Virus record (IMG/VR): IMGVR_UViG_3300028666_000036 | Location: 1 to 60,184 of that record | Source: a virus | DNA: 60,184 nt | Direction: 5' to 3' (one strand) | Shown here: positions 4,443 through 53,130 of the stretch, piece by piece | How positions within the stretch are numbered: position 1 is the first letter of the stretch | Layout: the number at the start of each line of letters is the position of its first letter | The notes under the pieces: generated by a model | Seen by the model: the letters and a program-made list of their open reading frames with translations, nothing else | What the model was told of the DNA's origin: nothing | Databases searched by the model: none | Position numbers and translations under genes: made by a program

Positions 4443-6061
4443 TGTCCTTCCCGGGTCCCGGCATCGCGCAAGCCACGAACACCCTGGTGTGCGACGGCGT
4501 CTATTCCGGCGCGACCGCACTCTCGGCAGTGACCACTACCAACCTCCCGCTGCGCTCAACGCTCGCATGGGTCGTAAGCATCGGAGACTATTTCCGACTG
4601 CAGCCAGGCAATTCAACCGGCGCCTACAGCGGGGTCACTGCGTATTCAGCGGGCGCGATGGTCACGAGCGGCGGCGTGACTTGGCTGGCCGTGGTGGCAT
4701 CGACCGGGCAAACCCCCGCCGCGGCCTCGGCATACTGGCAACCGTCCATGGCGCTCGTGGCCTCCGGCGATCTGGCGAATACGTGGGCGCGACTGGGAGT
4801 TCAGAACCTGTCATGGCAGGCGCAGGGTATATGGTCGGTCGATCCGGTGAATGGAAACGATGAGGCCACCGGCTATGGCGCGACGGTGACCGCGTCCGAC
4901 CTCGTCCCGCTGCGTACTGTAAAAGAGTGGCAGCGCCGCACGCTCGGGCGCGTGCTACCAACTAACACCCACGACATACTGCACCTGCTCGGAGATGTCA
5001 CGGATCCGACCGAGGCCACCGCGCTAACCCGCGGTATCCCGCCATGCCAAAGCGCCGGCGGGTCGTGGTTCGAACTGCGCGGCACCAAGTCGATACTTGC
5101 AACCGGCACCCTGACTAACGTCACCCAGCAATCCGGAAACACCCCGGCGATGGTAGAAGACACCTCGATCGCAACTTCCTGGACGGCATCCGGACTGATA
5201 TCGGGCACCGGCGGAGCCCGTCGGATCGAAAAAGTCGGCTCCAACGTGCGGGCCTATTTGATCAAGGATCTCGGATCGAAGCAGGCGCGTATTAATCCGG
5301 CGGTCAACATCACCGAGGATACTTCCGCGCTGTCATTTGGGTCCACCGTGGCGTTCAACATCGGCGACGCTTACCAGGTCGTCTCGCACTCCAAGTTCCC
5401 AGAGATCGTGTGCCCGCCAGCCTCTGCGATCAGGTGCCTGAACATCGAAATCGTCGGCATCGGCGCGACCTTCGCAGCGATCCTGACGCCTACCGGATCG
5501 AGCGGATACATGATCTGGTGCAGTTCGACCTCTGTAGCGCTGAACGTCTATTCCCCGATGTCTACCACGAATCTTATTGGATTCTGCGAGTGCGGCAGCT
5601 CTGGGTTCACATGGCGGGGGGAGATGCAGATCGGTACCTGCGTATTTATAGGCAACGGCTCGAAGTTCATCAGCACGGCACAGGCCTCCTCTGGAGATTG
5701 GCATTCAACAGGGATCATGACGTTCCAGGGATGCGGCATCCAATCGGTAAAGCCGTGCACTGTCACGAGGATGGGGACGATGCATTTCTGGGATTGCAAC
5801 GTCGTGTGCATCGACGTTCGCAACAACTGCACGCTAGCTCCCGAGATCGTAGCTGGAGCTGGAAACACGGCGGCGATCTTCAGCGTCACCCAGAACGGCG
5901 CGAAGATTTTTCACCCTGCAAACCTGGGGCAGACGTTCGTCCAAGCATGGACCGCCACGACCTCGGCCGCCGCCCCGGTCATCGTCGGCGTCACGGGCTG
6001 GCAGTACACCGACCTGCCTCAGTTCGTGGCGGCTCTCGACATGGGCATCTATGGGTCATGA
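4442..6061 (+). CDS. Tail spike/fibre with carbohydrate-binding-like N-terminal module
   Basis: 539 residues from ATG 4442, which overlaps the upstream stop as TGATG; an in-frame GTG at 4427 is less likely. Residues about 60-105 carry a motif of the CBM5/12 type (AYSAGAMV, VTWLAVVAST, GQTP, AYWQP). Residues 130-500 look like a beta-helix with many Cys, Asn and Gly turns, fitting a spike fold. The protein probably contacts host surface glycans. The next gene overlaps by ATGA, and that product has the terminator-like domain, so the two may assemble together. Confidence 0.7.
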   Translation: MSFPGPGIAQATNTLVCDGVYSGATALSAVTTTNLPLRSTLAWVVSIGDYFRLQPGNSTGAYSGVTAYSAGAMVTSGGVTWLAVVASTGQTPAAASAYWQPSMALVASGDLANTWARLGVQNLSWQAQGIWSVDPVNGNDEATGYGATVTASDLVPLRTVKEWQRRTLGRVLPTNTHDILHLLGDVTDPTEATALTRGIPPCQSAGGSWFELRGTKSILATGTLTNVTQQSGNTPAMVEDTSIATSWTASGLISGTGGARRIEKVGSNVRAYLIKDLGSKQARINPAVNITEDTSALSFGSTVAFNIGDAYQVVSHSKFPEIVCPPASAIRCLNIEIVGIGATFAAILTPTGSSGYMIWCSSTSVALNVYSPMSTTNLIGFCECGSSGFTWRGEMQIGTCVFIGNGSKFISTAQASSGDWHSTGIMTFQGCGIQSVKPCTVTRMGTMHFWDCNVVCIDVRNNCTLAPEIVAGAGNTAAIFSVTQNGAKIFHPANLGQTFVQAWTATTSAAAPVIVGVTGWQYTDLPQFVAALDMGIYGS

Positions 6062-7653: not shown

Positions 7654-9033
7654 ATGGCGCGCCCGCGGGAGATTCGCCCGCAGCCTGGGTTTCAGACCAA
7701 GACGCTATCGAGCCCCGCCGACATCGTGGTGTGTGGCGGCGCGGCTGGATGCGGCAAGACGTTCACCGAGGTCATCGCCCCCGCGCGGCACGTCCACGTC
7801 CCGGGATTCTCGGCGGTCATGTTTCGCCGCACCACGAAGCAGATCAAGAACCCCGGCGGTCTGTGGGACGAGGCCGAGAAAATCTACCCGCTACTCGGCG
7901 CGCGCTCGAACAACACCGAGCTCGAATGGAAGTGGAAGTCAACGGCGAAAGTCAAGTTCGCGCACCTCGAACACGAAGACAACGTCTACGATTGGCAGGG
8001 CGCGCAGATTGCGCTGATCATCTTTGACGAGCTCACGCACTTCACGCCGAAGCAATTTTGGTACATGCTCTCGCGCAACCGCTCGACGTGCGGCGTGCGC
8101 CCGCAGGTCATGGCGAGTTGCAACCCCGACGCGGATTCGTGGGTCGCGGCGCTGATTGCGTGGTGGATCGAGCAGGACAAAGAGTCGCCCGACTACGGGT
8201 TGCCGATCCCCACGCGGGCCGGCGTGCTGCGCTACTTCACGCGTATCGGTGACACGATCATCTGGGGTGACTCGCCCGACGAGGTGGTGCGGCAGGCGCC
8301 CGGCATGTCGATCGAGTGGGTCAAGTCGATCACGTTCGTCCCCGGCCGGCTTGAGGAGAACGCGATCCTGGAGAAGCAGGACCCGAGCTACCGCGGCACG
8401 TTGATGTCGATGTCGCGGGTCGAGCGCGCGCGGCTTCTCGGCGGCAACTGGAAAGCGAAGGCCGCGCCTGGCGACGTGTTCCGCCGTCACGAGGCGCACA
8501 TGCTCGACCGCGTGCCCGACGACGTGACCGCGTGGGTGCGCAAGTGGGATCTCGCCGCGACTGAGCCGGGGGAGTCGAACGCGGATCCAGACTGGACGTG
8601 CGGCGTGCTCATGGGCTCGCGACCGAACGGGCGTTACGTCGTGGCGCATGCCGAGTTCGCGCGCGAGCGATCGGCCAACGTTCGCCAGTTGGTCAAGTCC
8701 ACCGCGGAGCGCGACCCGAGCGGCACGCACGTATGGATTTCGCAAGACCCGGGGCAGGCGGGCAAGGAACAGGCCGAGGGATACGTGCAGTACCTCGCGG
8801 GGTTCGGCGTGAGTACCGAGCGCGAGACCGGCGACAAGGAGACGCGCGCCGAGCCGTTCGCGTCGCAGTGGCAGGCGGGCAACGTGGATGTGGTGCGCGG
8901 CAACTGGAACGAGGAGTACTTCGGGCAGCTCGAAGGCTTCCCGGGGTCGGGCACGCACGACGACGCGGTTGACGCGAGTGCGGGCGCATTTGCGAAGGTG
9001 GCGAACTCGCTATCCCTCTGGGACGTGCTCTGA
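7654..9033 (+). CDS. terL: Terminase large subunit (ATPase and nuclease)
   Basis: 459 residues. The N-terminal motor has Walker A GGAAGCGKT near residues 27-35 and Walker B IALIIFDE near residues 118-125. The C-terminal RNase H-like nuclease has WDLAA near 298 as first acidic motif, SQDPGQAG near 362 and HDDAVDA near 434. It cuts concatemeric DNA and pumps it through the portal. Length is normal for the family and all key residues are present. The portal it must dock to is encoded nearby on the opposite strand, which is unusual. Confidence 0.95.
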   Translation: MARPREIRPQPGFQTKTLSSPADIVVCGGAAGCGKTFTEVIAPARHVHVPGFSAVMFRRTTKQIKNPGGLWDEAEKIYPLLGARSNNTELEWKWKSTAKVKFAHLEHEDNVYDWQGAQIALIIFDELTHFTPKQFWYMLSRNRSTCGVRPQVMASCNPDADSWVAALIAWWIEQDKESPDYGLPIPTRAGVLRYFTRIGDTIIWGDSPDEVVRQAPGMSIEWVKSITFVPGRLEENAILEKQDPSYRGTLMSMSRVERARLLGGNWKAKAAPGDVFRRHEAHMLDRVPDDVTAWVRKWDLAATEPGESNADPDWTCGVLMGSRPNGRYVVAHAEFARERSANVRQLVKSTAERDPSGTHVWISQDPGQAGKEQAEGYVQYLAGFGVSTERETGDKETRAEPFASQWQAGNVDVVRGNWNEEYFGQLEGFPGSGTHDDAVDASAGAFAKVANSLSLWDVL

Positions 9034-9036
9034 GGC

Positions 9037-9065
9037 TTGACCCGGCCGCGCGCCCGGTGTACTGT
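9037..9065 (+). promoter_or_regulatory. Candidate promoter TTGACC-N17-TACTGT with TACTGTATGCA box
   Basis: TTGACC at 9037-9042 and TACTGT at 9060-9065 are 17 bases apart. The -10 is part of TACTGTATGCA, a word that recurs with one change at other promoters in this window and is identical at 34370. It lies between the terminase stop and a gene with a strong ribosome site at 9129, so transcription restarts here. Confidence 0.6.
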
Positions 9066-9128
9066 ATGCATTCGCCCCGACGCGATGGGGAAAATCGTGG
9101 GGCCAACGTCGTGAACGAAGGAGGCAAC

Positions 9129-9998
9129 ATGGGAGACGAGAAGGCGGAAAAGCAACGGCGCGCGATGACCATGCGGGCGAGGGCGAAGATCTGGAAGGCG
9201 GCGGCGGATGCGGCGCACGTCGCATTTGCTTCGATGGACGAAGCCGAGAGGGATGTGCGCGGAATCCGATGGGCGCTCGACGACGTCGATCGGATGTGGC
9301 TTCCAGTGGAGAGCGCCGCCCACGAAGCCGAAGCTGCGCTGGCAGCGCCCATGTGGACCTGCCCCGTGTGCGAGTGGGCCGCGTCGGATTGCTCGTGCGG
9401 GAAGTCGATGGCCGCCACCACGACCTGGCGATGCGCGTGCGGCTCACCCGCGCGCCGACGCGAGGACCGGTCGATCAGGTGCGACGCGTGCCATGCGGGC
9501 GCGCTCGCCACCATGCCGCCGTCCGAACGCACCGTGTTCCCGTCAGGCACCCACCGGGGCATTCAGTGGACGTCGGACAACGGTTTCCATTCGGAGACGC
9601 ACGTCGTCGCCCGCATCGCCGCGGACGGGAAGTCGTTCGCGGCCCTGCTCGCCGTGCCGGTCACTGACGTCGAGATCGAGCGCGCGGCGAAGTCGATGGT
9701 CGACCAGTACCTCGGCGACGTCGGCGAGCCCATCGATGCGGCGTACGATGACGTCAAAGGCCCGGGCGGCGAGTCCGCGGCGGACTCATTTGCTTCGAAG
9801 GCGCTGGCAAAGCTCGAACGCGACTGCGGGCGATGGCCGACGACCGAAGAATCTGCCGCAGCCGGCTCGTGGCTTGCGCAGCGAGTCCTGGCGTGCGCCA
9901 AAGACCCCGAGTTCCCCGACGAGTGCCCGCGCTGCCATGGCCCGGCGTACATCGGCTCGGGCTACGCGCCGGTGAAGTGCAAGGGAGGTTGCAAGTGA
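9129..9998 (+). CDS. Cysteine-rich protein with three zinc-ribbon-like knots, unknown function
   Basis: 289 residues from ATG 9129 with AAGGAGG in front. Residues 1-70 are helical and charged. Two Cys groups follow in the middle (WTCPVCEWAA...CSC near 77; CACGSP...CDACHAG near 101-125) and one at the C-terminus (CPRCHG...CKGGCK). The middle contains no known domain. The gene begins a three-gene set (9129, 9995, 10537) linked by GTGA overlaps. Zinc binding is inferred from Cys pairing. Confidence 0.75.
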   Translation: MGDEKAEKQRRAMTMRARAKIWKAAADAAHVAFASMDEAERDVRGIRWALDDVDRMWLPVESAAHEAEAALAAPMWTCPVCEWAASDCSCGKSMAATTTWRCACGSPARRREDRSIRCDACHAGALATMPPSERTVFPSGTHRGIQWTSDNGFHSETHVVARIAADGKSFAALLAVPVTDVEIERAAKSMVDQYLGDVGEPIDAAYDDVKGPGGESAADSFASKALAKLERDCGRWPTTEESAAAGSWLAQRVLACAKDPEFPDECPRCHGPAYIGSGYAPVKCKGGCK

Positions 9999-10540: not shown

Positions 10541-10800
10541 ACTCGGACGCCGCCAAAGAAGCCGTGCGCGAGCTCGGCCGCCAGCGGGGCGCGGGAGTGG
10601 CGCACACCACTGTCAAGCACGACACGGCGGCCAACTTCCAAGCGGTGATGAGCCGCTCGCCCGAGTTCCAATCGGCGTTCGAGCGAGACTGCCCGCGCGC
10701 GGTGCTGGACGACCTCGGCATATCGCTCGTGCTGGCGCGGCAGGTGTACCTGTGGGGATTCGTCGACGCCGCGTGCTCGACGCAGAAGCGCGGGCGCTAG
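10537..10800 (+). CDS. Small helical protein of unknown function
   Basis: 87 residues from GTG 10537 (GTGA overlap). Mostly alpha-helical with a mix of acidic and basic residues (KEAVRELGRQRG, ERDCPRAVLDDLG). Its end overlaps the end of the minus-strand portal gene by 4 bases, so the transcription units converge here. No domain is recognised. Confidence 0.65.
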   Translation: MNSDAAKEAVRELGRQRGAGVAHTTVKHDTAANFQAVMSRSPEFQSAFERDCPRAVLDDLGISLVLARQVYLWGFVDAACSTQKRGR

Positions 10801-12860
10801 CCCATCTTCAGCCGTCGGCGGGCCTTGGCCATCGTGGCGTACGGGCCGCCGATGCGCTTCCCGTCGCGATATACCGTCCAACCCGAGCCGTCGTGCTTGA
10901 ACATGTCGCCAGGCATCGCCCGGTCGCCGGTCGCCTTCGGCTCGTGCACCACCGTCGCGCCTGGATTCGCAGCGCGCCACTGCCCGAATACCGTCGCCAC
11001 ACCCTTGGCCATCGTCGCCTGACCGGCGGACAGCGGGACCTTGGGGCCATTCATCGACACCACGCAGTCGGCGGTGAGCTTTCCCGACCGAAGCGCGTGC
11101 GCCGTGTGCACGCCCTCGATGACGTACCGCTGGCCGATGGCCCTGGCGCGGGCTGCAATCTGCTCGGGCGTTTGCGCCCAACTGACCGTCTCGTCATTGA
11201 GCAGCTCGTCGGTTGACCACGTCGGCCGGTCTTTCACTAGGCTTGCCAGCGTGGTCTTCCCGTGCTTCGGGCCGCCGGTGATGACGATCGAGTCGTGGGT
11301 GTTCAAGCAATCCTGGAACCACGCCGGGATCTTCGTCGGCGCCGCATCTCCCGCCTCGTGCGCTGCCTGCTTCGGAAGCGTGACTTCGGCGGGCGGTGGC
11401 GTTTCCTTCGTGCCCGCCGACGCTCCACTGGCCTCGCTGCCCTGGTTCGCGTTTACGGGCTCGCCGGTCTCGGGGTCGAAGTTGCCCGGAGTCGTGGATT
11501 CGTTCTCGTCTGGCAATGACGCCTCTTCGGCCTCTTCGATGTCCTCGTCTTCGATTGTGCGGTAGGTCCCGCGATCCTTGAGCTCGCGGGCGGCGAGACC
11601 GGGCGTGATGACCTTCGCCGCGATGTAGGCGGCGTCCATCGTCGCGCGCGTGTTATCGCGGGCCGCCGCTTCGACGTCGGACATCTGCCAAAGGGGATTG
11701 AACGTCATCTCGAATCCGTCGGGCAGTCCGCCGAGGACCGAGCGCACGAGGATTTCGTACATGCGCATGAGGGGCGCGCGTAATTTCGCCTCCTGATCGC
11801 CAGACAGACGGTCGTAATAGTTGCGGATGTCGCTCTCTCCGGTAGCGCTGAGGCCGGCCGGGCTCTGCCCGAAAAGGCGCGTCGTCGGGATATCGGCGGC
11901 GCCCGATACGTCGATCATGAAGCGCACGAGGATGCTCTCGATCCCGCTGAACGACGTGACCTTTTGCTGCCACGACTCCGTGTCGGCGTCGAGCAGGAGG
12001 TTCTTGTTGAGCGACTTGTTCATCGCAGAAAGCTGAAACCGTTTGATGACTGCCGAGTCTTGGCCAGCGCTGAACGCCTTCGCGAGCCCCTTGGCCGAGA
12101 TGATGTCGACGTTCGCCTCGTGGAGCATCGACCCCGCAGCCGCACACGCGCCGTCGTAGTTCTGAAGCGCGTTGACTACGTGGAAGAGTTCACTGTCATC
12201 CCACATCGCGTTCTGCCGCCATTGGTAGTACGGCAACTCGCGGCCGGGCCAGCGGATCACGCGCGTCCAGTGCACTTGTTGCCCGCTCTCGGCGATCGTG
12301 TACATGAGCGGCAGGTCGAAGTTGGGCGAGTTCGTGTCTTGGTCCACGTCGGTGACGGCGGGGAATCGCCATCGGTCGCGCGTGATGAAGTTAAGAAGGC
12401 CGCCCTTCTTGATCTTCGTGACGTCGAGCGGGGTCGAGAGATCCTCGCCGCGCATGACGACGATCGAGCACGCGCCTCCGTAGAGGCGAGCCCACTTCAT
12501 GCCGGTGCGGATGCGCTCGCGAAACTTCAGCGCAACCTCGGCGACTTCGATCGCGTTCGAGTCGTTGTCGTCGTCGTCGCGGCCGTCCCACGTGAGCGCC
12601 ACCCATTCGCGGGTCATGTCCGCAACCGGAGCGTCGACGATCTTGCCGGCGAGCCACGATCCGCGATACATCGCATCGAGTTGCAGCTGCGACATCTGCA
12701 CCGGGATCGCGTATCCCGAGTACGCGTTCTTGTCAGAACTCGAGCCGAGCGCGCTGACGAGGTTCAGGAATCCGTCGGTCACGGCTTGCGGGCTGGCCGG
12801 AGGTGGCCCGTCGGCGGCCGAGATGGGCGGAATCGTGACCTTCGGGCGGCGCTTGCTCAT
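10797..12860 (-). CDS. Portal protein (DUF1073 type) with C-terminal P-loop kinase-like domain
   Basis: 687 residues from ATG 12860; an in-frame GTG at 12878 would add 6. Residues about 1-480 match the DUF1073 portal family (SGYAIPVQMSQLQLDAMY, WLAGKIVD, IVMRGEDLS, WPGRELPYY, PTTRLFGQSPAGLSATGE, FNPLWQMSD), the ring through which DNA enters the capsid. After an acidic Pro/Gly linker, residues about 510-635 form a P-loop domain: Walker A GGPKHGKTT near 527-535, then STDELL, RYVIEGVHTA and PLSAGQATMAKG, matching stand-alone phage nucleotide-kinase-like proteins. The last 40 residues (YRDGKRIGGPY) form a small extra module. Portals normally lack an ATPase, and this gene runs against its neighbours. 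Fusion and orientation are read directly; the enzymatic role is inference. Confidence 0.85.
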   Translation of the reverse strand: MSKRRPKVTIPPISAADGPPPASPQAVTDGFLNLVSALGSSSDKNAYSGYAIPVQMSQLQLDAMYRGSWLAGKIVDAPVADMTREWVALTWDGRDDDDNDSNAIEVAEVALKFRERIRTGMKWARLYGGACSIVVMRGEDLSTPLDVTKIKKGGLLNFITRDRWRFPAVTDVDQDTNSPNFDLPLMYTIAESGQQVHWTRVIRWPGRELPYYQWRQNAMWDDSELFHVVNALQNYDGACAAAGSMLHEANVDIISAKGLAKAFSAGQDSAVIKRFQLSAMNKSLNKNLLLDADTESWQQKVTSFSGIESILVRFMIDVSGAADIPTTRLFGQSPAGLSATGESDIRNYYDRLSGDQEAKLRAPLMRMYEILVRSVLGGLPDGFEMTFNPLWQMSDVEAAARDNTRATMDAAYIAAKVITPGLAARELKDRGTYRTIEDEDIEEAEEASLPDENESTTPGNFDPETGEPVNANQGSEASGASAGTKETPPPAEVTLPKQAAHEAGDAAPTKIPAWFQDCLNTHDSIVITGGPKHGKTTLASLVKDRPTWSTDELLNDETVSWAQTPEQIAARARAIGQRYVIEGVHTAHALRSGKLTADCVVSMNGPKVPLSAGQATMAKGVATVFGQWRAANPGATVVHEPKATGDRAMPGDMFKHDGSGWTVYRDGKRIGGPYATMAKARRRLKMG

Positions 12861-12891: not shown

Positions 12892-13068
12892 TCATGACGC
12901 GCGGATCAGGTGGCCGAGCCCTTCGGCGCGCAGCGCGGCCTCCACGCGCTCGCGTAGGCTCGGCCGCGTCGGCTCGCCCGCGATGACCTTCCGCACGGTG
13001 GACAGGCTGGCGTTGGCCGCGACCGCGACGCGCATCATCGCTTGGTGGGAACATGATGGTTCGTTCAT
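12892..13068 (-). CDS. Small HTH regulator upstream of the portal
   Basis: 58 residues from the ATG whose first base is 13068. Residues 12-50 read as a LacI/lambda-type helix-turn-helix (MMRVAVAANASLSTVRKVIAG, with STVRKVIAG as recognition helix). A longer in-frame start at 13164 is possible, but a good minus-strand promoter lies between the two. The gene ends 31 bases before the portal ATG, so both are probably on one transcript. A partial palindrome covers its own -35, suggesting autoregulation. Confidence 0.75.
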   Translation of the reverse strand: MNEPSCSHQAMMRVAVAANASLSTVRKVIAGEPTRPSLRERVEAALRAEGLGHLIRAS

Positions 13069-16441: not shown

Positions 16442-16512
16442 CGCGGGAAGTCTTTGGAGACAACCGGGCCCATACCCCGGTCTAGGTGGTTCGATGCCAC
16501 CTCCCGTTACCG
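16442..16512 (+). tRNA. tRNA-like element with CAT anticodon, short D arm
   Basis: A cloverleaf can be drawn: acceptor 16442-16448 with 16502-16508 (six of seven pairs, one G-T); a mini D hairpin 16450-16461 with only a TTGG loop; anticodon stem CCGGG/CCCGG with loop CCCATAC (anticodon CAT, 16471-16473); T arm GGTGG-TTCGATG-CCACC perfectly paired; then ACC. The D loop is too short and position 33 is C instead of T. It may be a degenerate Met or Ile-type tRNA, and it fills the gap between two coding genes. Confidence 0.5.
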
Positions 16513-43763: not shown

Positions 43764-44134
43764 TCACGGCGGGAATCATGCTGGCGTCCACTGGCGCGCT
43801 GGCCGGCGCAACGTCGACCACGTTCAACGCGGCGATGTTCATTCACGACACGAGCATCCCGATCACGCAGTCCGGTGGATTTCGGCTCCCGTCTGCGCTG
43901 GCCGCTCGGGGATGGACCTGTCAGGTCACAGACGAGGCGTTGTCAGACGACGGGCGCAAGGTCTTTCGGAACATCGCCTGCCGGTACGGAGATTCAACGG
44001 TGGTCGCGAGCGCGGCGTGCCTGCGCACGGCCCCCGACTTCGACAGCGGCGCGTTCTCGCTCCGAGCCGGCGACGTCGACGCTGCACTTGTGATCACGTG
44101 CAAGACCTCGGTGGCGGGGGGCGCCTCGCTGTGA
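43739..44134 (+). CDS. Secreted Cys-containing protein
   Basis: 131 residues from ATG 43739 with a strong AGGAGGGAGG. MRSKLAKLITAGIMLASTGALAGA is a signal peptide with signal peptidase I site near 22-24. Mature region has four Cys (TCQVTDEAL, NIACRYGD, SAACLRT, VITCKTS), likely disulphides in the periplasm. No known family; presumably envelope modification. Confidence 0.65.
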   Translation: MRSKLAKLITAGIMLASTGALAGATSTTFNAAMFIHDTSIPITQSGGFRLPSALAARGWTCQVTDEALSDDGRKVFRNIACRYGDSTVVASAACLRTAPDFDSGAFSLRAGDVDAALVITCKTSVAGGASL

Positions 44135-45285
44135 AGTCGATTCGTTGCAGCTCGCTTCCGCTCTTCATGAGATGCCCGAGCGCCCTCGAAGGCGATCTCC
44201 GCATCGACAGTTTCAACGACGCATCCGCGCTCGGGACCGCGGTTCACGAAGCGATGCAGGCGGTCGTCGGCGGCCTCATGGTCGACGTCGGAAAGCTGGC
44301 GGCCGAGCACGGCGTCGAAGCTGACGACCTGGGCGTGCTCGTATGGCTCGGCAGGAAGATCTGGGTCGAACTGGCGCCGAGCTTCCCCGGCGCGTGCTCC
44401 GAGGCGGAGGTCAACACGATCGACATAGACGGCAACAACCTGACAGATGATGCCGGGTTCGAACTGACCGGGCACATCGACGTCATGGCTTCGGTGCATC
44501 ACGACTCCGATAATGAGGAGGCTAGGATCCTGGACTGGAAGTCGGGGCGCATTGACGGCGACTACCGGGCGCAACTCATGGGCTACGCGTTGTGCATCTT
44601 CGCGATGGAGCTTGAGTTCCAGACGGTCACCGGGACGGTCGGCTGGCTGCGCGAGGGCGAGACGGAGACCTACGTCTTCCGTCGCTCGGAGCTGGCCAGC
44701 TACATCGCCGAGATCCGCGACCAGCTTGCGCGCGTCGGCCAGTACACCGTCGGCTCGCACTGCCAGTATTGCCCGCGGCGCCACTCCTGCCCGGCGCTCG
44801 CGGCACAGGCCCGGGCCGACGTGGCGCTGCTCGGCGGCTTGCAAATCATCGAAACCAGCGACGGGCCGAAGGGCATCTCGGCCATGCAGCCCGCCGAGAT
44901 CGTGCGCCTGTTCAAGATGTCCAAGATCATCGCGGCACAGGCGGAAAGCTTCCAGGACGCCGTTCGCCGGCTCGCGAAGGACGGGCCCATCGATGGCGGT
45001 GACGGGACCGAGATTCGCCTCGTGTCCGAGAAGGGGCCGCGCAAGGTGGACGCCGCGATCGCGTGGCCGATCCTGCTTGCGCGACTGACCGACGATGAGG
45101 TACTGTCTTCAATCAAGGTAAGCATCTCGGCTGTGGAAAAGGCGGTCATGGCGAAGGCCGAACGTGGCAAGGGCGCGGCGGCAAAGCGCGAACTCACAGA
45201 GGCGCTGGACGCCGTGCAGGCGACGAGTCAGACCACGATCCACAAGCTGAAGGTTTTGCGCACACCCAAAGGAGAAATCGAATGA
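44131..45285 (+). CDS. PD-(D/E)XK nuclease with Fe-S type Cys cluster (Cas4/AddB/DUF2800-like)
   Basis: 384 residues from GTG 44131. GTAVHEAMQA near 36, FELTGHIDVMAS near 110 and ARILDWKSGRIDG near 131-143 form the nuclease core: His, then D in GHID, and the D-x-K of DWK. A C-terminal HCQYCPRRHSCPAL near 209 with an N-terminal Cys (RCSS, MRCP) resembles the four-Cys cluster of Cas4. It would resect DNA ends for recombination with the neighbour at 45282. Confidence 0.8.
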   Translation: MKSIRCSSLPLFMRCPSALEGDLRIDSFNDASALGTAVHEAMQAVVGGLMVDVGKLAAEHGVEADDLGVLVWLGRKIWVELAPSFPGACSEAEVNTIDIDGNNLTDDAGFELTGHIDVMASVHHDSDNEEARILDWKSGRIDGDYRAQLMGYALCIFAMELEFQTVTGTVGWLREGETETYVFRRSELASYIAEIRDQLARVGQYTVGSHCQYCPRRHSCPALAAQARADVALLGGLQIIETSDGPKGISAMQPAEIVRLFKMSKIIAAQAESFQDAVRRLAKDGPIDGGDGTEIRLVSEKGPRKVDAAIAWPILLARLTDDEVLSSIKVSISAVEKAVMAKAERGKGAAAKRELTEALDAVQATSQTTIHKLKVLRTPKGEIE

Positions 45286-47402: not shown

Positions 47403-47725
47403 CGCCGGCAGACCACGCGGGCGAGGCATTCCTGCGCCGGCACGCGAAGGGCGCTACGCCGGGCGAGGCGTTCGAGGAGGCGCTGCGCGCGTGGAGGGGC
47501 AAGTCCAACACGCCTCTGGAAAACGTCGCCAAAGACATGGGTGCGCGCGCCGACCTGATACGAAGTCGGTCGCGGTTGCCGGAAATCGTGCGCACGCGCG
47601 ACGAGGCGGCTTGGCGCATGCGCGAGTCGGGCATGACCTACTCGGCAATCGGTCGGGCGCTCGGGGGAATGAACCATTCGAGCGTGATCACTGCGGTTCG
47701 GCGGCACATTGGGAGGCGGACGTGA
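47399..47725 (+). CDS. DnaA domain IV-like DNA-binding protein
   Basis: 108 residues from GTG 47399 (GTGA overlap). Residues about 60-107 (RSRSRLPEIVRTRDEAAWRMRESGMTYSAIGRALGGMNHSSVITAVRRHI) follow the DnaA C-terminal domain: an arginine-rich segment, helix, then IG-R-L-GG-x-NHSSV-x-x-AV, close to the DnaA signature GGRDHSTV. It lacks the AAA+ part, so it may bind an origin-like DNA and recruit the helicase or regulate initiation. Not a usual phage initiator. Confidence 0.65.
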   Translation: MTPADHAGEAFLRRHAKGATPGEAFEEALRAWRGKSNTPLENVAKDMGARADLIRSRSRLPEIVRTRDEAAWRMRESGMTYSAIGRALGGMNHSSVITAVRRHIGRRT

Positions 47726-49119
47726 GCGAGTACGAGGAATTCATCGAGCGCAAGAGGCTTCTGGTCGCGCCGTCCGGGTTCGAGGCTGCCGAGGTTTCTG
47801 GCATGGCCTACCCGTTTCAAGCCGACATCATTCGGTGGGCGTGTCGCATGGGGCGCGCGGCAGTGTTCGCTGACTGCGGACTCGGGAAGAGCCTGATTCA
47901 ACTCGAATGCGCGCGGCTTATGGTCGAGCACTCCGGAAAGCCGGCGCTGATTCTCGCCCCGCTGGCGGTGGCGCAGCAGACCGTGCGCGAGGGTGAGAAG
48001 TTCGGGATCCACTGCCGGTACCTCAGACAGGACGACGGAGCGCCCGGAATCGTGGTCGCCAACTACGAGATGCTAGAGCACTTCGACGCGCGGCGGTTCG
48101 GGACCGTCATCCTCGACGAGTCGTCGATCCTCAAAGCTCACACGGGCAAGATGCGAAACCTCATCATCGACACGTTCTCGTCGACGCCATACCGACTCGC
48201 CTTCACGGCCACGCCGAGCCCGAACGACTTCACCGAGCTCGGTAACCATTGCGAGTTTCTCGGCGTCATGCGCCGCACGGAGATGCTGTCGATGTTCTTC
48301 GCGCACGACGGGGGCAGCACGCAAGACTGGCGCATCAAGGGCCACGCGCAAAAGGACTTCTGGAAGTGGGTATGCGGCTGGGCGGTCATGATTCGGTCGC
48401 CTGCGGATCTCGGGTATGAGACGAGCGACTTCGTCCTGCCGCCCATGCGCATCGAAAAGAGCGTCATCGCGGCCGACCATTCACAGGCCAAGAAGTCCGG
48501 CTTCCTGTTTGAGATGGAGGCGCAGACGCTGCAGGAACGGCGGGCGGCGAAGCGGGGCACCATCTCGGCGCGGTCGAAGGCATGCGCGGACTTGATTGCG
48601 TCTGAGCCGGGAGAGCAGTGGCTCACGTGGTGCAATCTCAACGACGAGGGCGACGCTCTCGCCGCGTTGATCCCGGGCGCTGTCCAGGTGTCAGGGTCGG
48701 ACACGCGTGAGCACAAGGAGTCGTCGATCGCCGGGTTCACCGAAGGTCGCATCCGCGTCCTCGTCAGCAAGCCGTCGATGTTTGGGCACGGCCTCAACCT
48801 GCAAAACTGCGCGCGCATGGCTTTCGTCGGCCTCTCGGATTCGTTCGAGGAGTTCTACCAGGCCGTGCGCAGGTGTTGGCGATTCGGGCAGAAGCGCGAG
48901 GTCGCGGTGCACGTCATAACGTCCGAGCTTGAGGGCGCCGTCGTCGCTAACATCCAGCGCAAGGAGGCGGACATGGTGAAAATGATCGCCGGCATGCTCG
49001 AAGAGATGCGCGCAGAGATGCGCGCGAACGTCCGTGGGACGCAGCGGAATGTCGTCGAGTACGAGCCGACGAAGAAACTCAAAATCCCAGCTTGGCTAAC
49101 TTCCGAGGTGCGCACATGA
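47722..49119 (+). CDS. SNF2/DEAD-type helicase (SF2)
   Basis: 465 residues from GTG 47722 (GTGA overlap). Q-like motif FQADIIRWACRMGRAAVFADCGLGKSL (Walker A GLGKS near 52), motif II as VILDESSIL (about 130), motif III LAFTATPSPND (about 157), C-terminal lobe with VLVSKPSMFGHGLNLQNC (about 351) and AVRRCWRFGQKREV (motif VI, about 378). This is a known phage class near DNA methylases; it likely translocates on DNA to unwind or remodel in replication or recombination. Confidence 0.85.
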   Translation: MSEYEEFIERKRLLVAPSGFEAAEVSGMAYPFQADIIRWACRMGRAAVFADCGLGKSLIQLECARLMVEHSGKPALILAPLAVAQQTVREGEKFGIHCRYLRQDDGAPGIVVANYEMLEHFDARRFGTVILDESSILKAHTGKMRNLIIDTFSSTPYRLAFTATPSPNDFTELGNHCEFLGVMRRTEMLSMFFAHDGGSTQDWRIKGHAQKDFWKWVCGWAVMIRSPADLGYETSDFVLPPMRIEKSVIAADHSQAKKSGFLFEMEAQTLQERRAAKRGTISARSKACADLIASEPGEQWLTWCNLNDEGDALAALIPGAVQVSGSDTREHKESSIAGFTEGRIRVLVSKPSMFGHGLNLQNCARMAFVGLSDSFEEFYQAVRRCWRFGQKREVAVHVITSELEGAVVANIQRKEADMVKMIAGMLEEMRAEMRANVRGTQRNVVEYEPTKKLKIPAWLTSEVRT

Positions 49120-50006
49120 ATGTCATCGATCAGAAAGTTACCGACCGGTTCGCAATCTACAACGGAGATTCATGCGAGGTGCTCAAGGGAATCCCGGACA
49201 ACTCCGTCGACGGCTCTGTATTTAGCCCCCTGTTTAGTTCTCTTTACACATACTCGGCCAGCGATCGCGACCTCGGCAACTGCACCGGCGAGGATGAGTT
49301 TTTCGAGCACATGAAGTTCTTGATCGCGGACTTGCTTCGGGTGACGAAGCCAGGTCGGAACCTCGGATTCCACTGCATGACGATGCCGACTTCTAAGGCC
49401 AAGGATGGATACATCGGCCTCCGAGACTTCCGCGGCACGCTCATTCGCGCATTCGAAGCTGCGGGTTTCATCTTCCATTCCGAAGTGTGCATCTGGAAGG
49501 ATCCCGTCACGCAGATGCAGCGAACGAAAGCCCTGGGCCTGCTTCATAAGCAGGTACGCAAAGACTCCGCGATGTCGCGGCAGGGGCTAGCGGACTATAT
49601 CGTGACAATGCGAAAGCCAGGGGAGAACCCGGACCCCATCACACACGACGACTCAGACTTGCCTGTGTCATTGTGGCAGAAGTACGCGTCCCCTGTCTGG
49701 ATGGACATCAACCCAAGCAATACGCTCCAGAAAGAGTCAGCGCGCGAAGACGAGGACGAGCGTCATATCGCGCCGTTGCAACTCGACGTGATCGAGCGGT
49801 GGCTTCACCTGTGGTCGCGTCCCAACGACGTGATCCTGTCCCCCTTCGCCGGCATCGGCAGCGAGGGATACCAGGCGCTGAAGATGGGCCGACGGTTCAT
49901 CGGGTGCGAGCTAAAGCCGTCGTACTACAAGCAGGCCGTGCTTAACCTTGACGCGTGCGAGAAGGCGCAGTCCGTCGGCGACCTGTTCTCGCGCATCGCC
50001 CCGTGA
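49116..50006 (+). CDS. DNA N4/N6 methyltransferase (beta class)
   Basis: 296 residues from ATG 49116 (ATGA overlap). Motif IV near 37-40 reads SPLF, where the family has SPPF/SPPY; a C-terminal motif I, SPFAGIGSEGYQALKMGRRFIGCELKPSYYKQA (about 243-275), and an order IV-I match the beta class. Leucine replaces the second proline, which may reduce activity or indicate an altered enzyme. With the cytosine methyltransferase it would modify phage DNA. Confidence 0.8.
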   Translation: MNVIDQKVTDRFAIYNGDSCEVLKGIPDNSVDGSVFSPLFSSLYTYSASDRDLGNCTGEDEFFEHMKFLIADLLRVTKPGRNLGFHCMTMPTSKAKDGYIGLRDFRGTLIRAFEAAGFIFHSEVCIWKDPVTQMQRTKALGLLHKQVRKDSAMSRQGLADYIVTMRKPGENPDPITHDDSDLPVSLWQKYASPVWMDINPSNTLQKESAREDEDERHIAPLQLDVIERWLHLWSRPNDVILSPFAGIGSEGYQALKMGRRFIGCELKPSYYKQAVLNLDACEKAQSVGDLFSRIAP

Positions 50007-51125: not shown

Positions 51126-51283
51126 CGACGCCCGACCAAATCCGTTCCTGGATCCGCCAACTCGACGCAATCCGCACGGCACTCGTCGCCGGCCCCTTCT
51201 CGGCCTCGGCATCTCGCGCCCTGGAGCGCGCCGACGACATGATTGCCCGACTACAGGCGCTACTCGACGAGGCCCGCCAGTGA
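51122..51283 (+). CDS. 53-residue helical protein
   Basis: ATG 51122 overlaps the initiator stop (ATGA). One or two amphipathic helices (IRSWIRQLDAIRTALVAG, SRALERADDMIARLQALLDEARQ) suggest coiled-coil dimerisation. Lies between initiator and primase-helicase genes, so an accessory in replication is plausible. Confidence 0.55.
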   Translation: MTTPDQIRSWIRQLDAIRTALVAGPFSASASRALERADDMIARLQALLDEARQ

Positions 51284-53130
51284 CGATCCACGAGTTCGTG
51301 GCGCGTCTGAAATCCGCCAAGGCGTGCGGGGATCGACGCTGGATGGCCCCATGCCCCGCTCACGACGACCGGATGCCTTCGCTCTCGGTCACAGCTGGCA
51401 CCGGCGGCAAAATACTCGTGTGCTGCCACGCAGGATGCGATACCGCGGCAATCTGCGATTCGCTCGGGCTCAAGGTCGGGGACCTGTTCGAGGAACCACT
51501 CGTCAACGGCAAAGCCGAGGAAACCCTGGACCCGAGGGAGTGGCCGGTCACCGCGGTCTACGAGTACTTCGACGCCGTGTGGGTCTTGAAGTACCGCGTG
51601 TCCCGCTTGACCTCGCCCGACAGCGGCCGCAAGTCGTTCCGGCAAGAGTCCATGCAGGGCGGCAAATGGGTCCCCTCGATGACCGGCGTCGAGCGCATAC
51701 TCTACCACGCGCCGCAACTCGCGAAGTCCACGGGCGTCGTGTTCTTGGTCGAGGGCGAGCGCGATGTGGAATCGGTCGAGGCACTCGGGCTCACTGCGAC
51801 GACCAAGACGGGCGGGTCGAGCTCGAAGTGGGAGGCCGGCATGGTGGCCGCGCTGAAGGGCCGCAGCGTCGTCGTGTTGCCCGACAACGACGTCCCGGGC
51901 GAGAAGGCCGCGACACTGGCACAAGCCGCGCTGGGCGAAGCCTGCGAGTCCGTGAAGGTACTCAAACTACCGGGGCTGCCGCCAAGCGGAGACGTCACGG
52001 ACTGGATCGGCGCGGGCGGCACCGCCGAGAAGCTGCTGGCCATGGTCGCGCGACTCGAGGCCGGCCCGCGCTTCCTCCGGTCGCCAGAGCGATTGAGCGG
52101 CGAGCGCGCGCGGCGGCTCGACGACGGCAAGTCGCTCTTGCACTTCGGGGTGCAGTTCCTTGACGACGCGTTCGGAGGCATCACGCGACAGGATCTCGTG
52201 CTCGTTGGGGCGAAGTCGGGCGCCGGCAAGACGGCCCTCGTCAGCGGCATCTCGCTGGCAAACTGCACACTTGGCAAGCGCGTGCACCAGTTCCAGCTGG
52301 AGGCCGAGGACATCGAGATTGAGCGCCGCATGAAGTTCACGATCCTGGCCTCGAAGTTCTTCGCCAGCGGCACGCGCTCGAACGCCGACATCCGCTACAT
52401 CAACTGGCGCAACGGGAAACTCGAACAAGAGCTCGGTCCCTTCGACAGCGAGACGGACGCCGAGCTTCGAAAGATCCTCGCGAACCTGAGCACGTACTAC
52501 CGGATCAACTCGTTCACCAGCGACGACTTCTCGCGCCTATTCGCGAGTGTTCAGGATGAGACGGACCTAGTTGTGCTCGACCATTTCCACTACGTGGACG
52601 TCGACGACAAAGACGAGTATCGCGGGCAGAAAAAGATCCTCCAACAGATCCGCGACTCAGCATTGCGCGCGGATCGCCCGGTCATCGTCGTCGGGCACAT
52701 CCGCAAGTCGAGCGGTCGCTATGATTCGGTGGTCCCAAACGAGGACGCATTCCACGGCTCCAGCGACCTCGTGAAGATTTCGACCAAGGCGATCATGATT
52801 GCGCCCGACTACGAAACGCCGTCTCCCGGTCCGGGCCAGTGGTCGACGTACATGCGAATCGTGAAGTGCCGCGCCGACAGCTCACTCACGCGCTATGTGG
52901 CGAAGCTGACCTTCGACACGCGCACGAACTCCTACCTCCCGCACTACACGCTCGGCCGACTCGACATGACGGGGCAGACATGGGAGGCGCTGACGAGCAG
53001 TGAGTGGCCGCGCTGGTACAAGTCGAGTCCCGGCGCCGACGGCCGCCCGACGCCACCGCCCGTCGATGACCCACCGCCAACCCGAACCCGCATTCCCGAT
53101 CGATGGGACCCACCCGAGGAGGACAGATGA
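51280..53130 (+). CDS. Bifunctional primase-helicase
   Basis: 616 residues from GTG 51280 (GTGA overlap). Primase zinc site CPAHDDRMPSLSV ... CCHAGC near 25-51; TOPRIM with VEGERDVE near 156-163 and VLPDNDVPGEKA near 200. Helicase core: GAKSGAGKTALVSG near 309 (Walker A), then VVLDHFHYVD near 428 (Walker B) and a DnaB/RepA-type end (VGHIRKSSGR). Similar to T7 gp4 type organisation. It unwinds and primes the replication fork. A Pro/Arg tail follows. Confidence 0.9.
   Translation: MTIHEFVARLKSAKACGDRRWMAPCPAHDDRMPSLSVTAGTGGKILVCCHAGCDTAAICDSLGLKVGDLFEEPLVNGKAEETLDPREWPVTAVYEYFDAVWVLKYRVSRLTSPDSGRKSFRQESMQGGKWVPSMTGVERILYHAPQLAKSTGVVFLVEGERDVESVEALGLTATTKTGGSSSKWEAGMVAALKGRSVVVLPDNDVPGEKAATLAQAALGEACESVKVLKLPGLPPSGDVTDWIGAGGTAEKLLAMVARLEAGPRFLRSPERLSGERARRLDDGKSLLHFGVQFLDDAFGGITRQDLVLVGAKSGAGKTALVSGISLANCTLGKRVHQFQLEAEDIEIERRMKFTILASKFFASGTRSNADIRYINWRNGKLEQELGPFDSETDAELRKILANLSTYYRINSFTSDDFSRLFASVQDETDLVVLDHFHYVDVDDKDEYRGQKKILQQIRDSALRADRPVIVVGHIRKSSGRYDSVVPNEDAFHGSSDLVKISTKAIMIAPDYETPSPGPGQWSTYMRIVKCRADSSLTRYVAKLTFDTRTNSYLPHYTLGRLDMTGQTWEALTSSEWPRWYKSSPGADGRPTPPPVDDPPPTRTRIPDRWDPPEEDR

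What the first reader, a model, noticed from the sequence alone, without database searches (positions are those of the whole stretch)
10797..12860. Portal protein fused to a P-loop kinase-like domain, on the opposite strand to the head genes
Seen: a DUF1073-type portal of about 480 residues continues through an acidic linker into a domain with GGPKHGKTT, STDELL, VIEGVHTA and SAGQATMAKG, then a small C-terminal module. The gene runs opposite to the terminase and capsid genes. Known: stand-alone phage P-loop proteins carry the VIEGV and GQxxMAKG pattern; portals normally rely on the terminase for ATP. Inference: the added ATP-binding domain could sit at the DNA entry vertex and modify DNA ends, act on nucleotides in the head, or travel with DNA.
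Basis: partly seen in the sequence, partly recalled or inferred. Interest (0 to 1): 0.72.

Follow-up and report, generated by a model that had tools for sequence, protein, structure and literature searches.

The report
Phage portal carrying a kinase-fold domain
In this uncultivated phage the ring protein through which DNA enters the capsid carries a small kinase-shaped domain, and relatives of that domain sit beside or are fused to several parts of the DNA-packaging machine in many environmental phages, which suggests an enzyme at the packaging vertex that nobody has described.

Summary
One uninterrupted 687-residue ORF (12860-10797, minus strand) joins a Phage_portal_3/DUF1073 portal to a P-loop domain and a 45-residue tail. 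The same gene is found nucleotide-identical in a second metagenome and at 68% identity in a third, inverted in both; both domains are under purifying selection. AlphaFold gives the P-loop part a kinase fold (pLDDT 89.5; adenylate, polynucleotide, gluconate and shikimate kinases tie at Z about 9-10). It belongs to a family of about 66 small phage proteins with no PHROG or specific Pfam model, absent from 50,696 of 50,697 phage records and not found in two pattern scans of 84,980 prokaryote genomes. 40 of 64 non-redundant loci have it fused to, or within 450 nt of, portal or packaging genes. Single contigs show fusions to the MuF-like head protein, large terminase and small terminase. A stand-alone version right behind a DUF1073 portal is the fused form's closest relative. 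I read it as a phosphotransferase of the DNA-packaging vertex, here tethered to the portal's inner end. The substrate is unknown. A head-packaged, injected effector is the main rival. Portal-enzyme fusions are a known theme; this domain and its spread over four packaging components were not found in the literature searched.

The parts
10797..12860 (-). whole gene: portal - linker - P-loop kinase-fold domain - C-terminal module, 687 aa
   Evidence: single ORF; identical in L002, 68% in L003
11559..12779 (-). portal core, residues 28-434
   Evidence: PF06381 321 bits, phrog_146, TIGR01555; solved relatives Pam3 and E217 portals
11316..11558 (-). acidic, low-conservation linker, residues 435-515
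   Evidence: 51% identity and dN/dS 0.42 between window and L003 for residues 441-515; sequence reads E/D/P/G/A-rich
10938..11315 (-). P-loop kinase-fold domain, residues 516-641
   Evidence: AlphaFold pLDDT 89.5 for the 188-residue C-terminal part; VIA-align Z up to 10.1 to P-loop kinases; family alignment
11250..11276 (-). Walker A GGPKHGKTT, residues 529-537
   Evidence: sequence; G, G and K invariant in the family alignment
11199..11216 (-). STDELL, residues 549-554: family motif TDDLI after strand 2
   Evidence: Asp/Glu motif present in 65 of 66 unique members
11109..11123 (-). VIEGV, residues 580-584; the following family motif RALRKW is degenerate here (HALRSG)
11001..11024 (-). GQATMAKG, residues 613-620, lid-like helix; Gln invariant
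10800..10937 (-). C-terminal module, residues 642-687, three strands and a helix, DUF2188-like at best
   Evidence: model strands 153-175 and helix 178-187 of the 188-residue fragment; DUF2188 E 0.055, below cut-off
12892..13068 (-). small HTH (LacI/Cro-like) ORF just upstream on the same inverted strand; conserved in L003
   Evidence: LacI E 0.0038, below cut-off

Best explanation
The domain is a compact P-loop phosphotransferase that works at the DNA-packaging vertex. Usually it is a separate late gene beside the portal or terminase. In this lineage the neighbouring gene has fused, through a flexible linker, to the portal's C-terminus. Shown: the fusion, its conservation, purifying selection, the predicted fold, and the gene's adjacency to or fusion with packaging-vertex genes. 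Inferred: since related portals point their C-terminus into the head, a dodecamer would hold about 12 kinase domains in the capsid lumen around the incoming DNA, where they would phosphorylate a nucleotide or a nucleic-acid end (or recycle nucleotides for the motor) during packaging. The acceptor is not identified; the acidic TDD motif placed after strand 2 is where hydroxyl-phosphorylating P-loop kinases carry their catalytic acid (from general knowledge), so a hydroxyl acceptor is slightly preferred.
For: Fold: models at pLDDT 89.5 (window) and 96.1 (stand-alone L019), both closest to P-loop small-molecule or polynucleotide kinases, Z about 9-10 over 115-128 residues. Selection: dN/dS 0.26 for the P-loop part against 0.21 for the portal. 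Context: 40 of 64 non-redundant loci fused to or within 450 nt of portal or TerL; TerL within 2.6 kb in 34 of 48 against 16.5 expected by random placement, and in 16 of 30 contigs of 20 kb or more against 5.0 expected, maximum 13 in 2000 draws. Fusions: portal, MuF-like head protein in L025 (Phage_Mu_F E 3.9e-15), TerL in L049 and TerS in L028, both AT-rich so long ORFs are not chance. Origin: the fused forms group with L053, a stand-alone gene 36 nt behind a DUF1073 portal (support 96/86). Site: the E217 portal C-terminal barrel enters the head and residues after 528 of 765 are unresolved (PMC10329688, PMC11042391).
Against: No activity shown. 24 of 64 loci are not close to portal or TerL by my criteria. 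Some portals were identified by position or weak matches only. TerS, TerL and MuF fusions rest on one contig each. The fused version lost the family's most conserved motif (RALRKW to HALRSG or RGLRSG), so it may have lost or changed its substrate. Gene fusion could reflect operon neighbourhood alone. Substrate class cannot be read from the tied structural matches.
Confidence: 0.42

Rival explanations
1. It is a head-packaged effector. The portal (or MuF) only carries the kinase into the virion; the domain is released, perhaps by the DUF2213 protease, and enters the host with the DNA to modify host nucleotides, cell-wall precursors or defence signals.
For: MuF and portal proteins fused to enzymatic effectors (2H, Nudix, ART, InPase, zeta-toxin-like kinase on MuF) are proposed to be packaged and injected (PMC5512222, PMC9503650). 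The linker is long and fast-evolving. The window has a head protease gene.
Against: TerL and TerS, the partners in L049 and L028, are not virion components (general knowledge), so injection does not explain them. The family is distant from zeta toxins by profile (Zeta_toxin E 0.23 over 26 residues of L012). No cleavage site was identified.
Confidence: 0.3
2. The domain is a nucleotide-binding regulator or structural module, not an enzyme: it binds ATP and adjusts portal, terminase or scaffold interplay (a headful or ATP sensor).
For: The fused copies keep Walker A, TDEL, EGV and GQATMAKG but lose RALRKW, the presumed acceptor-side motif. The lid helix carries a Lys rather than the Arg residues usual in kinase lids (alignment, general knowledge).
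Against: Stand-alone members conserve both motif sets, which looks like an active site.
Confidence: 0.15
3. Neutral neighbourhood: a mobile kinase gene with a function elsewhere (nucleotide metabolism) settles in the late operon and fuses by stop-codon loss without working at the vertex.
For: 24 of 64 loci lie away from portal or TerL by my criteria; some neighbours are methyltransferase or ParB genes.
Against: Association exceeds random placement about threefold in long contigs. Fusion partners are all packaging or head-vertex components. The fused form has been kept under selection.
Confidence: 0.13

Closest known systems
Phage_portal_3 / DUF1073 portals (Pam3 8hds, E217 gp19 8fvh, Pa193-type gp19 9b41)
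   Same: Portal core homologous by sequence (E 1.7e-53, 1.8e-14 and 3.5e-15); E217 and Pa193 also have a long C-terminal extension after the barrel, unresolved by cryo-EM
   Different: The window's extension is a P-loop kinase-fold domain; what the E217 extension is was not examined
Portal/MuF-effector fusions (2H, PBECR, Nudix, ART, InPase, zeta-toxin-like kinase on MuF) described in PMC5512222 (2017) and PMC9503650 (2022)
   Same: An enzymatic domain hung on a portal or MuF head protein
   Different: This P-loop family was not found there; it also occurs on TerS and TerL and as a small gene touching portal or TerL
NMP/shikimate/gluconate kinases and bacterial polynucleotide kinase (CthPnk 4gp7, 4mde); Pfam AAA_18/AAA_28
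   Same: Predicted fold and Walker A; one family member (L071) passes the AAA_18 cut-off, 32.8 against 29.4 bits
   Different: At about 125 residues it is smaller; it has its own motifs WSEAS, PGPWIxEGV, RALRKW and GQxxMAKG; the window member does not pass any kinase Pfam cut-off
MW202476.1 UOF77383.1 (Caudoviricetes sp., Manatee Spring), annotated 'ADP-ribosylation factor-binding protein'
   Same: The only family member found among 50,697 phage records; stand-alone, start overlapping the portal end
   Different: Separate gene behind a portal of another family (related to the phrog_145/DUF4055 portal of L011); its annotation looks wrong

Membership tests
Phage_portal_3 / DUF1073 portal | Profile match above the curated cut-off over the core | tested here: met
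   321 bits against 33.8; TIGR01555 320.9 against 196.25; Pam3 and E217 portals by phmmer
Phage_portal_3 / DUF1073 portal | Position in a terminase-portal-protease-MCP head module | tested here: met
   TerL, DUF2213 protease, cement and MCP flank it; the orientation is reversed, also in L002, L003 and L015
P-loop kinase fold | Walker A plus parallel alpha/beta kinase core | tested here: met
Pfam AAA_18 | Score above the gathering cut-off | tested here: not met
   Window domain 13.1 bits against 29.4; met only by the family member L071, 32.8 bits
Adenylate kinase | AMP-binding Arg (R36 of E. coli AK) after the TGD motif | tested here: not met
   hhalign pairs TGDMLR with SDDLIG; no conserved Arg at that place in the family
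Adenylate kinase | Large lid domain with several Arg | tested here: not met
   Models have only a short helix with GQxxMAKG; sequence-based
Polynucleotide 5'-kinase | Fold similarity to a polynucleotide kinase | tested here: inconclusive
   CthPnk Z 9.8, tied with other kinases
Polynucleotide 5'-kinase | Catalytic Asp with Arg three residues on | tested here: inconclusive
   Family has TDDLI/STDELL: Asp present, no Arg at +3; the rule is recalled and no residue-level structural alignment was available
Zeta-toxin-like kinase on MuF | Zeta_toxin profile match | tested here: not met
   No match of the window domain at E up to 1; L012 E 0.23 over 26 residues
Portal-fused 2H phosphoesterase / Acb1-type effector | 2H domain on the portal | tested here: not met
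   The extension is a P-loop fold; no 2H match in Pfam
Head-packaged effector | Present in virions and delivered into the host | not testable with these tools
   Needs virion proteomics; uncultivated phage

The most novel reading that the evidence does not exclude
Tailed phages have an undescribed family of minimal kinases that belong to the genome-packaging machine itself, combining with portal, small and large terminase or MuF as separate gene or fusion, and phosphorylating DNA ends or nucleotides at the vertex; in this phage a ring of about 12 of them lines the inner mouth of the portal.
Probability: 0.27. Interest if true: 0.82.

Novelty: new variant of a known kind. Interest (0 to 1): 0.58.

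Why it matters
DNA packaging is usually described with one ATP-using enzyme, the large terminase. A second P-loop enzyme family that recurs beside or fused to portal, TerL, TerS and MuF would mean that some phages carry out another phosphoryl-transfer step at the packaging vertex. The stand-alone members are about 125 residues long and well predicted, so the activity can be tested directly. The family is nearly absent from the public phage records, which would explain why it has gone unnoticed.

Tried and rejected
Chimera or frameshift: rejected (identical ORF in L002, homologous ORF in L003). Decaying passenger domain: rejected by dN/dS 0.26. Exact family assignment of the P-loop part: no PHROG, Pfam or NCBIfam match above cut-off, no significant PDB sequence match for the single domain. 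The profile search against PDB gave many hits on the Walker A region only; 4eun thermoresistant glucokinase covers most of the domain at E 1.5e-4. Prokaryote genomes: two pattern scans gave no confirmed relative; such scans miss divergent sequences. Further portal-fused members: none beyond the two species. ATP regeneration for the motor: the literature search gave nothing. The family's RALRKW and PGPW conservation is partly built in, as the search patterns used them; among 28 members found only through PGPW, 25 still have RALRKW. Full-length portal model: not run, the two structure jobs went to the window domain and a stand-alone member.

Full report
OBSERVATION. The window is an IMG/VR virus record of 60,184 bases. 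On the minus strand one ORF runs from ATG 12860 to the stop at 10797-10799, 687 residues, with no stop between its parts. Its portal part matches Phage_portal_3 (PF06381, 321 bits; cut-off 33.8) and phrog_146. TerS, TerL, DUF2213 protease, cement protein and major capsid protein are on the plus strand. The arrangement is not an artefact: an 18-kb contig from another metagenome (L002) has the identical gene (0 differences in 2061 nt), and a 35-kb contig from a third (L003) has a 713-residue homologue, 68% identical, also inverted. A small HTH-like ORF precedes the portal on the inverted strand in both species. L015 has an inverted DUF1073 portal too, there with a separate P-loop gene.

SELECTION. 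Between window and L003, dN/dS is 0.21 for the portal, 0.42 for the linker, 0.26 for the P-loop part and 0.31 for the C-terminal module. The domain is maintained.

FOLD. AlphaFold with 60 family sequences gives the window C-terminal part pLDDT 89.5, and a stand-alone member (L019) 96.1. Both are P-loop kinase folds. VIA-align puts adenylate kinase (Z 10.1, 2.6 A, 118 residues), C. thermocellum polynucleotide kinase (9.8, 3.5 A, 127), gluconate kinase (9.3) and shikimate kinase (9.1) within one unit; L019 gives the same set. These are ties and do not name a substrate. The AMP-binding Arg of adenylate kinase is missing.

A FAMILY. With the window domain, L003 and a public relative (MW202476.1, H1) as seeds, one scan gave two further relatives, L011 and L012; a second, seeded with L012, L011 and MW202476.1, gave 68 loci, and a last one two more. 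66 unique sequences from the earlier sets were compared. Consensus: RixIaGgPrxGKtTla - rxTDdL - WSexS - WfdxPGpWixEGVaxpRALRKWl - PxDxviwl - GQxxMAKGcxTVw. There is no PHROG for it; Pfam AAA_18 and AAA_28 match weakly, and only L071 passes a cut-off. In 50,697 phage records only MW202476.1 has it, and two pattern scans of prokaryote genomes found none.

CONTEXT. The gene touches the portal in many unrelated head modules: DUF4055/phrog_145 portals (L007, L011, L022, L046, L051, L057, L062), phrog_12082 (L012), phrog_113 (L035, L037, L075) and DUF1073 (L015, L053). Counting fusions and genes within 450 nt of portal or TerL, 40 of 64 non-redundant loci qualify. About eleven of these portals are inferred from position behind TerL with only a weak DUF4055 match in one of them, and seven more from one weak phrog_156 match in their cluster. 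TerL lies within 2.6 kb in 34 of 48 records with a located TerL (16.5 expected), and in 16 of 30 contigs of at least 20 kb (5.0 expected; at most 13 in 2000 draws). 24 loci do not fit.

FUSIONS. Besides the portal there are three others, each in one contig: MuF-like head protein then P-loop (L025, 429 residues, Phage_Mu_F E 3.9e-15), P-loop then TerL (L049, 647 residues, 33.5% GC) and P-loop then a TerS-like protein (L028, 298 residues, 30.6% GC, TerL next). In the tree the two portal-fused domains join L053, a separate gene 36 nt behind a DUF1073 portal (96/86), so the fusion probably arose from such neighbours; the fused branch is long (2.6) and the root is a midpoint root.

WHERE IT SITS. 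E217 gp19, a sequence relative of the window portal (E 1.8e-14), sends its C-terminal barrel into the head; residues 529-765 were not resolved in E217 or Pa193 (PMC10329688, PMC11042391). The window's domain should therefore sit in the capsid lumen (inference).

MECHANISM. The partners portal, TerL, TerS and MuF meet at the packaging vertex. TerL and TerS leave before the virion is complete (general knowledge), so injection alone does not explain them. I favour a phosphotransferase acting at the vertex during packaging. The rival, an injected effector, follows published reasoning for MuF and portal fusions, including a zeta-toxin-like kinase on MuF (PMC5512222, PMC9503650). In the fused lineage RALRKW is degenerate, so its substrate may differ or it may only bind nucleotide.

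NOVELTY. Enzyme-on-portal is a known kind; this domain, its minimal size and its spread over four packaging components were not found in the literature searched. I therefore call it a new variant of a known kind.

Noticed in passing
window 12892-13068 (-); L003 about 5793-5970 (+): A tiny HTH-like ORF (weak LacI match) sits directly upstream of the inverted portal gene in both species, so portal-kinase and a possible regulator may form one reversed transcription unit.
   Followed up: partly
window 7654-9033; L003 10757-12124: The two species share portal, protease, cement and MCP types, but their large terminases fell into separate profile groups when each was used as a seed, suggesting a terminase swap next to the portal.
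   Followed up: no
window 9057-9998; L003 9890-10699: A protein with paired CxxC motifs (CPRCHGPAY / CPRCGGQAY), perhaps a zinc ribbon, lies between TerL and portal in both species.
   Followed up: no
window 16442-16511: tRNA-Met (CAT) gene just behind the major capsid gene.
   Followed up: no
L012 4847-5350: A dual-specificity phosphatase-like gene (DSPc E 1.2e-6, below cut-off) overlaps the end of the stand-alone P-loop kinase gene: a possible kinase/phosphatase pair behind a portal.
   Followed up: no
L028 4665-5939: A ParB-like plus DNA methyltransferase protein lies just upstream of the P-loop-TerS fusion.
   Followed up: no
window 10800-10937: C-terminal module with a DUF2188-like pattern and a basic end (KARRRLKMG) is conserved in L003; its role is unknown.
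   Followed up: partly
MW202476.1 65277-65726: The public annotation 'ADP-ribosylation factor-binding protein' for this family member looks wrong.
   Followed up: yes
window 43912-45285, 47491-49119, 49092-50006, 51280-53130: PD-(D/E)XK nuclease, DEAD/SNF2-like helicase, N6/N4 DNA methylase and Toprim-DnaB primase-helicase genes.
   Followed up: no
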